The translations under genes were made by a program, and so were the position numbers. A stretch of DNA of 60,000 nucleotides from Tubulanus polymorphus (lineage: Eukaryota > Nemertea > Palaeonemertea > Tubulaniformes > Tubulanidae), in the NCBI RefSeq assembly GCF_964204645.1, contig NC_134035.1:11949951-12009950 (forward strand), given 5' to 3'. A model generated the notes under the pieces. It saw only the letters and a list, made by a program, of their open reading frames with translations, was not told where the DNA came from and ran no database searches. Each line of letters opens with the position of its first letter. Position 1 is the stretch's first letter. This document shows, one piece after another, positions 30,901 through 33,900 of the stretch.

Positions 30901-33900
30901 AGGAATGAATTCTTTCAGTAAGCGTTTTCTTATCTCCAATGACATTCAGGTACCAGTATAAAGACTTTCAAATGATTACTTAATATATTCTGAATATTTT
31001 TACTTCAACATGGTAGAGATTTAGGTTTTAAAAGGTCATAAACCTAAAACCTTATTTCCTACCATCATCAATTTATGAATATTCTTTACTTCTATATGGT
31101 AGAAATGATTTATGCGTTTCCATCAAGTATGTGAGATGGCTAGCAAGGAATATCACGTCTTCGCTTCATTGAAAAGAAATATAAAGCATATCAAACCTGT
31201 TTGAGTAAGATCTGAAGGGTGCCGACATTTACGCCGTATTTGTGATACCAAAACTTCAAACAACGACCCTTAGCCGGCGTAGGATCGAAGATTTCAGATA
31301 CTAATCGCGCTCGATCACCTTTCTTCTGAGGTTGAGACGATTCCGTGAAGATATATGTTCCTGAAATAGATATACATATTCAAAGTAATTGTCAGAAGAA
31401 TTGGATCCTATGAACCTTAGTGTCGTAACAAACCTTCAGAGGTTCCTAATGTATGATCGACTGAGGGTCCGGTGTGCCACGTTGGTGTACTTCCCTTTCC
31501 CAACTGCCAATCAAAGTCTGCGAGTGCGTGATTCCAACCGCAAATTCCGTTCTCGAAATCGCAGTCACCTGTAACAGCAACAAATCAGTATAAACAGTTA
31601 CAAGTCACATCAGTATCGGTTTATTGGATGAATTCAGTTACAAAATACAACATGGTCTATGGGACAAATCCATTTAGAAAAAATTTGTATTTCTGTATAT
31701 GTGAAGCAGCTATTACTATTTCTCAGCAATAGTCAAACTGTGACAATGAATTCTTGGTTTCTATTTCATAAGAAGGCATCGTCACAGCTGAACTACTGCA
31801 AAGCAAAATTTTGCAGGAGCAAGGATTCAAGGTTATCCCTCGATGTGATACGCAAAAGCAATATTTCAGGTGTCACGATGAATTCTTCAATCTATATGAA
31901 ACAAGAAGGCATCGTCACAGCTGAATTACGGCAAAGCAAGTTTTTGAAGAAGCTAGCAATGATTAAACCACGTCTGTGAATGGATACACCCCAGCAATAT
32001 TTCAGATGTAACGATGAATTCTTCAATCTATATGTAAAAAGAAGGCATCGTCACAGCTGAACTACGGCAAAGCAAGTTTTTGAAGAAGCTAGCGATCTAT
32101 GATTAAACCACGTCTGTGAATGGATACACCCCAGCAATATTTCAGATGTAACGATGACTTCTTTGTCTTAACGCAACAAGAAGGCATCGTCACAGCTGAA
32201 TTACGGCAAAGTTATGAATATGTGGAATAAAAGCAGCACGAAAATATTTTTTAAATTCAGATTGTGAGAAGCTAATGCAATAACAAAACTGCGACAATGA
32301 ATTCTTGGATGAAATTTTATAAGAAGGCATTGTCACAGCTGAGCTATGGTAAAGCATTGTTACAGCGAGCAATATGTAGGGTAGGTCCTCGAAATGTTGA
32401 TGAAATTATGTGATAAGCGATTAGCTGTAGATCAGCTTTGACGACGAAATCTTGCTTTTTATGATACAAGAAGGCATCGTCACAGCTGAAGTATCGCTAA
32501 GCATTTGACGAGGACAAAGCATCTTACAACGAGCTATATGAAAGATCGTTAGAATTCAGCATACATTTTTTCTGCGTGAAGCTACAGCAAAAGTTTAGCT
32601 CTGAAGATGGATTCTTGGTTTTTATGCATAACAAGAAGGCATCGTCACAGCTGAACTGTGGCAAAGCAAGCATCAAATACGGAACTAGCTGAAACATGTT
32701 CAAAAATACAAGTCCCCAGTATTTTGCGCGATATAAGCTCAGGCAATAGTTTAGATGTGACAATGCATTCTAGGCAAATACTTCATTAGAAGGCATCATC
32801 ACAGCTGAACTATGGCAGAGCAAGCTGAATAACAGTAGAGCAAGCTGAACAGAAATACAATCTGAAATACAAGCTAGAGAATCTACATATTAATCATCAT
32901 ATGCCATAAGAGGGCTGATGAGCAAAGAAGTCTTTTCGCAAAGCTCATGATCTTTGTATAATAGGCTAAAGCAATAGTAAAGCTTTGACGGTGAATTCTT
33001 GATGTCTGGATCTAACAAGAAGGCATCGTCACAGCTGAACTATGGCGAAGCAAGCATCTGAAAAATCCGAAAGCAAGTACTTTGCGAAAGCGCGCTATGT
33101 TACCCCGATCTCTGCGAAGAGGCCTTAGTAATAGGACAGCGGTGACTATGACTTCTTAGTTCGTATTTCATAGGAAGGCATCGTCACAGCTGAACTACGG
33201 CAAAGCAAGCGTTTTAAGTCAAGCACAAGTCGATAACTACGCAGCACCAAGAGGTTCCAGATATCGATAAGCCCTAGCAATATTTCAGATGTGAAAATGT
33301 ATTCTTCGTCTATATATATATATATAACAAGAAGGCATCGTCACAGCTGAATTACGGCAAAGCAAGCGTTTTGAGTCAAGCACAAGTCAATAACTACGCA
33401 GCACCAAGAGGTTCCAGATATCGATAAGCCCTAGCAATATTTCAGATGTGAAAATGTATTCTTCGTCTATATATATATATATATAACAAGAAGGCATCGT
33501 CACAGCTGAATTACGGCAAAGCAAATAATACTGTCGGCTAAATATAAGCATTTTCTCATCAGGTGAAATACTTACCTAGAACACCGCAAGAACCGTCACT
33601 GACCGCGATATCATCTATAGCGATATCACCCATATAATGCGCTCCGACGATTCCTTCGAATGCCACCTGAAATTCATGAGATGATATTACACACGTATCG
33701 GATAGAAGCTGAAGAGTTTGAAGACATAAAGCGAAAACTGACGTGTAAATTCTGATTAGAGGGTAGATCAACTTCGGCGAAGTTCCATTTATTTCCTTGG
33801 TCAGTGCTGCGGCTCCATAACGCCGGACCAAGATTCGATATCTGTCCGATTTCTTGCTTCGCGTAGTAAACATTCAACGATCCGATGTGTTGTCCGTACA

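What the first reader, a model, noticed from the sequence alone, without database searches (positions are those of the whole stretch)
31726..33517. Twelve tandem microRNA-like hairpins inside an intron of the MAM gene
Each unit has two 30-nt arms that align ungapped and a short loop of 14-24 nt, giving foldbacks of about 74 nt or a little more. One arm is almost unchanged through all twelve copies while spacers of varied length (about 50-170 nt) have drifted, which suggests selection on the hairpin. I do not recognise the arm as a known microRNA, although the drifting arm read on the minus strand has a TCACAG string that recalls the miR-2 seed region. A twelve-member intronic cluster would be large for an invertebrate.
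Basis: partly seen in the sequence, partly recalled or inferred. Interest (0 to 1): 0.9.

Follow-up and report, generated by a model that had tools for sequence, protein, structure and literature searches.

The report
Twelve-copy miR-1989 cluster in ribbon worm
A ribbon worm appears to carry twelve near-identical tandem copies of the conserved microRNA miR-1989 in one intron of a giant MAM-domain gene, probably a way to make more of one regulator.

Summary
Twelve head-to-tail hairpins lie in one 2,007-nt intron (33575..31569, minus strand) of a giant MAM-domain gene, in sense. The near-invariant arm, read on the minus strand, is TCAGCTGTGACGATGCCTTCTT (9 of 12 identical; 4 changes in 264 positions). 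It matches the 5p guide of the spiralian family MIR-1989: nt 1-9 identical and 16 of 22 overall to the printed fluke miR-1989, and 19 of 22 to a clam sequence that I recall as mollusc miR-1989. The miR-2 hint is not supported. Pairwise difference is 3% in the guide, 27% in the star arm, 51% in the loop; 11 of 12 carry the basal UG. No further hairpin copy was found in the 268-Mb genome, which speaks against a MITE. A contig-length match names the species Tubulanus polymorphus (Nemertea). In passing: MIR-1992 (6 copies) and MIR-1994 (3) are tandem there too, whereas let-7 and miR-124 gave one exact match each. Best reading: an intronic polycistronic cluster that raises the dose of one guide, as in miR-430 arrays. 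Family and cluster type are known; twelve copies of MIR-1989 are new as far as I could search. No small-RNA reads were available.

The parts
31569..33575 (-). Host intron of the MAM gene, 2,007 nt, GTAAGT...TTACAG; phase 1 at both ends as read by eye
33576..33666 (-). Upstream MAM exon (C-terminal part of a MAM domain, [30 protein letters not shown]); its start near 33666 is approximate
   Evidence: read; Pfam MAM in the frame that holds it (25.7 bits, just under the 26.4 cut-off)
31434..31568 (-). Downstream MAM exon (N-terminal part of a MAM domain)
   Evidence: (31.1 bits)
33416..33531 (-). Hairpin h1; guide 33488..33509
   Evidence: 100.3 bits; z -5.3
33259..33372 (-). Hairpin h2; guide 33329..33350; recent duplicate with h1 (period 157, 97% matches)
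   Evidence: 103.1 bits; z -5.0
33110..33215 (-). Hairpin h3; guide 33172..33193, ends CCT as in the clam sequence (20 of 22)
   Evidence: 90.3 bits; z -3.5
32953..33060 (-). Hairpin h4; guide 33017..33038
   Evidence: 100 bits; z -4.0
32725..32830 (-). Hairpin h5; guide 32787..32808, two changes, at nt 11 and 22
   Evidence: 96.2 bits; z -5.2
32569..32676 (-). Hairpin h6; guide 32633..32654
   Evidence: 96.6 bits; z -2.9
32406..32511 (-). Hairpin h7; guide 32468..32489; most diverged outside the guide
   Evidence: 84.2 bits; z -5.5
32259..32364 (-). Hairpin h8; guide 32321..32342, one change at nt 12
   Evidence: 94.6 bits; z -5.2
32116..32221 (-). Hairpin h9; guide 32178..32199; the one copy without the basal UG
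   Evidence: 99.2 bits; z -5.9
31976..32082 (-). Hairpin h10; guide 32039..32060
   Evidence: 104.3 bits; z -4.6
31840..31946 (-). Hairpin h11; guide 31903..31924
   Evidence: 101.6 bits; z -5.4
31708..31813 (-). Hairpin h12; guide 31770..31791
   Evidence: 104.5 bits; z -7.0

Best explanation
The locus is a homogeneous tandem cluster of twelve MIR-1989 microRNA genes. It is transcribed with the giant MAM gene (or from an intronic promoter in the same direction). Each hairpin would be cut by Drosha and Dicer to release the 5p guide UCAGCUGUGACGAUGCCUUCUU, nearly the same from every copy. The cluster grew by repeated tandem duplication of units of about 135-160 nt, and purifying selection held the guide and the pairing while loops and spacers drifted. 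The most likely effect is a higher dose of one guide. Shown here: the twelve hairpins, intron position and orientation, the family match, the constraint on the guide, no second locus found. Inferred: transcription, processing, loading, the dose effect and targets.
For: Family: nt 1-9, seed included, are identical in 12 of 12 copies to Fhe-Mir-1989 and sja-miR-1989 UCAGCUGUGUUCAUGUCUUCGA (PMC7878377; PMC4752461), 16-18 of 22 overall; nt 1-8 identical and 18-20 of 22 overall to ucagcugucaugaugccuuccu of the clam Tegillarca (PMC3972184, printed there as an unnamed candidate, Tgr-nmiR-35; that this is mollusc miR-1989, and that its contig is Lottia's, is recalled). Clam and fluke forms are themselves 16 of 22 identical. 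Arm: the fluke sequence is listed as 5' and the snail one is named ola-miR-1989-5p; the conserved arm is 5p on the minus strand. Constraint: mean pairwise difference guide 0.030, star 0.266, loop 0.511, 5p lower stem 0.197, 3p lower stem 0.360; guide against star, column permutation p 4e-5; 4 guide changes of 264 against 44 star changes of 264; the best conserved 22-column windows are columns 22-43 and 23-44 (tie), the latter being the known mature sequence. Structure: 88.3% of 324 pair cells standard, 33-49% when slid by 1-3 columns; 20 G-U cells on the minus strand against 7 on the plus strand. Processing signal: UG at -14/-13 in 11 of 12, background 0.087, the position given for human Microprocessor in PMC7174388 (passages). 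Host: MAM exons on the same strand on both sides. Taxon: a spiralian that also has MIR-1992 and MIR-1994 matches.
Against: No small-RNA reads could be looked at, so expression and processing are unproven. The only miR-1989 sequences seen in print under that name are those of flukes, which differ at 4-6 of 22 positions. Folding energy alone does not settle the strand: in 5 of 12 (h3, h4, h5, h6, h11) the plus strand has the more negative z. CNNC at +16 to +18 is present in 0 of 12 (counted from an inferred star end). Rfam, searched over 25000..40000, gives no match at its own threshold and none named mir-1989; over the cluster the only match up to E 1 is mir-605 at 36.2 bits against a cut-off of 98. 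Covariation is weak: 3 of 27 pairs with a change on both sides, reached by 13 of 500 shuffles, as expected when one arm hardly varies.
Confidence: 0.88

Rival explanations
1. A MITE or other dispersed inverted-repeat element that happened to pile up here.
For: Hairpin units with near-identical arms in tandem.
Against: Whole-genome pattern search, up to 3 mismatches: 13 of 15 matches lie in this cluster (the 12 guides and one pairing arm); the two others, on C2, fold poorly and do not match the covariance model. DNA search with one whole unit: 9 of 9 matches lie in the cluster; it missed h5, h7 and h8, so it would also miss elements that diverged. Constraint is on the 22-nt guide, not on the ends of the unit.
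Confidence: 0.01
2. A miR-2 family cluster.
For: TCACAG occurs on the plus strand in 12 of 12 conserved arms and, in h5, as ATCACAG.
Against: On the minus strand only 1 of 12 star arms has TCACAG; on the plus strand 11 of 12 read GTCACAG. The minus strand matches MIR-1989 from its first base on.
Confidence: 0.01
3. The array acts from the plus strand: an antisense transcript would carry twelve sites complementary to miR-1989 and work as a decoy, or would make a different small RNA.
For: Plus-strand hairpins are stable as well, in 5 of 12 more so by z.
Against: More G-U pairs are kept on the minus strand (20 against 7); the basal UG sits on the minus strand; no separate MIR-1989 locus for a decoy to act on was found; host exons run on the minus strand.
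Confidence: 0.05
4. Recent neutral tandem expansion of a miRNA gene, most copies idle; the likeness of guides only reflects youth.
For: Recent duplications are plain: h1/h2 (period 157, 97% matches) and h9-h11 (period 136, 91% matches).
Against: Groups that differ on average by 32-49% outside the guide still hold the guide almost unchanged; with h2, h10 and h11 left out, guide difference is 0.040 against 0.290 for the star.
Confidence: 0.05

Closest known systems
MIR-1989 (spiralian microRNA family)
   Same: Identical seed and nt 1-9, 5p guide, 16-18 of 22 to the printed fluke form; taxon within Spiralia (PMC6468455: shared by flatworms with spiralian taxa; passages).
   Different: The passages I saw show one gene: one hairpin locus in Schistosoma japonicum (PMC4752461), one unsuffixed name Fhe-Mir-1989 in Fasciola (PMC7878377), none in octopuses and bobtail squid (PMC9699675). 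Here twelve in tandem.
miR-430 clusters of fishes
   Same: Many tandem copies of one family at one locus in most species (PMC10417697, abstract and passages).
   Different: Unrelated family; in zebrafish triplets of variants with a promoter every two or three triplets; here nearly one variant, inside a single intron of a coding gene.
mir-3791 of the spider Parasteatoda tepidariorum
   Same: Tandem expansion of one family in an invertebrate: 34 copies, 13 within 50 kb (PMC4987109, passages).
   Different: Unrelated family and looser spacing; here 12 within 1.8 kb and no further copy found.

Membership tests
MIR-1989 | Seed CAGCUGU at nt 2-8 | tested here: met
   12 of 12 copies
MIR-1989 | Guide from the 5p arm, 5' end at UCAGCUGU | tested here: met
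   Arm position in 12 of 12 folds; a best-conserved window begins there. The true 5' end needs reads.
MIR-1989 | Similarity over the whole mature sequence | tested here: met
   16-18 of 22 to the named fluke form; 18-20 of 22 to the clam form, whose name is recalled
MIR-1989 | Host is a spiralian | tested here: met
MIR-1989 | Conserved genomic neighbourhood | not testable with these tools
   No other spiralian genome is held
Canonical animal microRNA gene (criteria recalled) | At least 16 paired positions between the arms, loop of 8 nt or more | tested here: met
   16-20 of 22 guide positions paired, loops 14-24 nt, 12 of 12
Canonical animal microRNA gene (criteria recalled) | Reads from both arms with 2-nt 3' overhangs and a fixed 5' end | not testable with these tools
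   No small-RNA data
Canonical animal microRNA gene (criteria recalled) | Basal UG at -14/-13 (an enhancer) | tested here: met
   11 of 12; h9 lacks it
Canonical animal microRNA gene (criteria recalled) | CNNC at +16 to +18 (an enhancer, not required) | tested here: not met
   0 of 12
miR-2 | Seed AUCACAG (recalled) | tested here: not met
   0 of 12 on the minus strand; 1 of 12 (h5) on the plus strand
MITE | Copies dispersed in the genome | tested here: not met
miR-430-like homogeneous array | Many tandem copies with one seed at one locus | tested here: met
   promoters within the array were not tested

The most novel reading that the evidence does not exclude
In this ribbon worm the microRNA families peculiar to spiralians or lophotrochozoans were amplified in tandem as a group (MIR-1989 twelve-fold, MIR-1992 six-fold in two clusters, MIR-1994 three-fold) while older families stayed near single copy, and the MIR-1989 dose is tied to expression of a giant MAM protein: a dosage programme built on young microRNAs. 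Basis: 3 of 3 such families found are multi-copy; of 3 old families let-7 and miR-124 gave one exact match each and miR-1 one match with 1 and one with 2 mismatches. Six families picked by me are too few to test it, and the age of MIR-1994 is recalled.
Probability: 0.2. Interest if true: 0.65.

Novelty: new member of a known kind. Interest (0 to 1): 0.45.

Why it matters
MIR-1989 is one of two microRNA families that flatworms are said to share with other spiralians (PMC6468455), and in the passages I saw it is a single gene. Twelve intronic copies with a nearly frozen guide make a natural test of microRNA dosage in a little-studied phylum: the copies have diverged enough outside the guide that reads of star strands and loops could tell which are processed. 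It also warns that copy number of conserved families cannot be taken as one in nemerteans.

Tried and rejected
Rfam (25000..40000 only): four matches up to E 1, none at the gathering score; mir-605 over h9 was set aside. MITE: rejected. miR-2: rejected. Two extra 22-mer matches on C2 (2 and 3 mismatches): weak folds, no model match, treated as chance; the reversed-pattern control gave 0. Mollusc miR-1985 pattern: 0 matches at up to 3 mismatches. COX1: no match in the assembly. Exon model of the MAM gene is a rough script that asks for phase-1 exons and MAM-like strings, so exon ends are not all reliable, and one listed 'exon' (33505..33395) lies inside the hairpins and is false; one search was a failed first version. 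A MAM exon search gave only distant relatives. Paper search was poorly chosen (6,272 papers, 12 listed, none of these with Tubulanus polymorphus).

Full report
What is there. The window lies at C11:11949951-12009950 of a genome of 268 Mb in 77 contigs. MAM-domain exons run on the minus strand along the window: 18 of 18 minus-strand frames given to Pfam matched MAM and no other family, 17 of them over the cut-off (picked by eye), and MAM exons lie beyond both ends (2 of 2 frames tested). A rough exon script lists many more (it presupposes phase-1 exons). A 162-aa exon frame finds MALRD1-like of Priapulus as best relative (44% identity). Between a MAM exon ending at 33576 and one beginning at 31568 lies an intron of 2,007 nt with GTAAGT and TTACAG ends. 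It holds twelve hairpins, in the sense direction of the gene.

The hairpins. The conserved arm occurs 12 times on the minus strand, with none expected by chance. All twelve fold on that strand, z -2.9 to -7.0, loops 14-24 nt, 16-20 of 22 guide positions paired. The arms pair without offset: 88.3% of 324 cells are standard pairs, against 33-49% when the partner is slid. Only 3 of 27 pairs change on both sides (13 of 500 shuffles reach that), so covariation proper is weak. The plus strand folds about as well, and better by z in 5 of 12. The strand is argued from the family match, the host gene, G-U pairs (20 against 7) and UG at -14/-13 in 11 of 12. CNNC at +16 to +18 is absent in 12 of 12.

Selection. 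Mean pairwise difference is 0.000 in the seed, 0.030 in the guide, 0.197 in the 5p lower stem, 0.266 in the star arm, 0.360 in the 3p lower stem and 0.511 in the loop. Leaving out h2, h10 and h11 as recent duplicates changes little (guide 0.040, star 0.290). The most conserved 22-column windows are the mature sequence and the window one column before it (tie). Outside the guide, by average linkage, h7 differs from the rest by 49%, h1 and h2 from each other by 7%. So old and young copies stand side by side and the guide has been kept.

What it is. The guide matches MIR-1989. Against the sequence printed as Fhe-Mir-1989 and sja-miR-1989 (PMC7878377 and PMC4752461, passages) nt 1-9 are identical and 16 of 22 in all (18 for h5, 16 for the others). 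Against a clam sequence (PMC3972184, passage) it is 19 of 22 (20 for h3, 18 for h8); that paper lists it as an unnamed candidate with 9 reads, and I recall it as mollusc miR-1989. Clam and fluke forms are 16 of 22 identical, so the worm's guide is as near to either as they are to each other, or nearer. The arm is 5p, as in flukes and a snail (PMC2820009 and PMC6387573, passages). MIR-1989 is described as shared by flatworms with spiralian taxa (PMC6468455, passages) and as lost in coleoid cephalopods but present in Nautilus (PMC9699675, passages). Reported expression: ovary region of female Schistosoma japonicum (PMC4752461), changes in oyster haemocytes (PMC4650145, passages) and in an estivating snail (PMC6387573).

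Species. An intact HSP70 frame of this genome (L020, on C5) finds an HSP70 of Tubulanus polymorphus at 94% over 90% of the query, on a contig of 21,623,276 bases (best 120 of 7,992 listed). Contig C7 of this genome has exactly that length and bears an HSP70 frame. Tubulanus polymorphus is a palaeonemertean, Lophotrochozoa, Spiralia. The genome held is unnamed, so this rests on the length match.

One locus. Within 3 mismatches the guide has 15 matches in the genome: 12 guides and one pairing arm in this cluster, and 2 on C2 without good hairpins; the reversed-pattern control gave 0. The clam form finds only cluster members (11 of 11). A whole unit finds only cluster members (9 of 9), but it missed 3 of the 12 known copies, and that search reports lower bounds. 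A very divergent paralogue could be missed.

Other families in this genome. MIR-1992: six matches in two groups, two on C1 (1 mismatch) and four on C7 (2-3 mismatches), 6 of 6 fold with the guide in the 3p arm; the reversed-pattern control of that search gave 2 chance matches. MIR-1994 (sequence and name recalled): three matches on C7 within 350 nt, 3 of 3 fold with the guide in the 3p arm, controls 0. let-7: one exact match and one with 2 mismatches, one of them in the second base, controls 2; miR-124: one exact, controls 0; miR-1: one with 1 and one with 2 mismatches, controls 0. The matches of these three were not folded. Six families, picked by me, make the pattern a lead only.

Mechanism. 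Most likely the intron, or a transcript in the same direction, is a polycistronic pri-miRNA whose twelve hairpins give nearly one and the same guide, so that copy number sets dose. Transcription, processing and dose are inferred. Known parallels are the miR-430 arrays of fishes (PMC10417697, abstract and passages) and the mir-3791 expansion of a spider (PMC4987109, passages); in Drosophila most clusters began with new hairpins and fewer by tandem duplication (PMC3763532, abstract and passages).

Is it in print? Searches for miR-1989 (15 papers; passages of 7 of them read), for its sequences (268 papers, 40 listed; 5 papers), for four spiralian families (41 papers, 25 listed), for spiralian microRNAs by phylum (none) and for Tubulanus or nemerteans with microRNAs (6,272 papers, 12 listed; 19 papers, 10 listed) showed no multi-copy MIR-1989 cluster in the listings and passages seen. 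The library holds open-licence papers only; MirGeneDB and miRBase could not be searched.

Noticed in passing
L013 (G000:C7:4272000-4275000) and L014 (G000:C1:25378500-25380500): MIR-1992 has six hairpin copies in this genome in two tandem groups (4 and 2), guide in the 3p arm.
   Followed up: partly
L018 (G000:C7:5222071..5222420): MIR-1994 (sequence and name recalled) has three tandem hairpin copies within 350 nt.
   Followed up: partly
window 1..60000, continuing in L015 and L016: A giant run of MAM exons on the minus strand, extending past both ends of the window: a MALRD1-like gene (or genes) of very many MAM domains.
   Followed up: partly
window 52248..53210: Minisatellite of a 22-bp unit (about 43 copies; also scored as 66-bp units) in what looks like an intron of the MAM gene.
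   Followed up: no
window 26471..26580, minus strand: Long foldback that weakly matches Rfam MIR2593 (35.8 bits, cut-off 96.2); probably a chance inverted repeat.
   Followed up: no
window 32803..33017: The stretch between h5 and h4 is longer (guide spacing 230 against 133-165) and holds short direct repeats of the hairpin flank (20-nt period at 32803..32851), perhaps the remains of a lost copy; no model hit there.
   Followed up: partly
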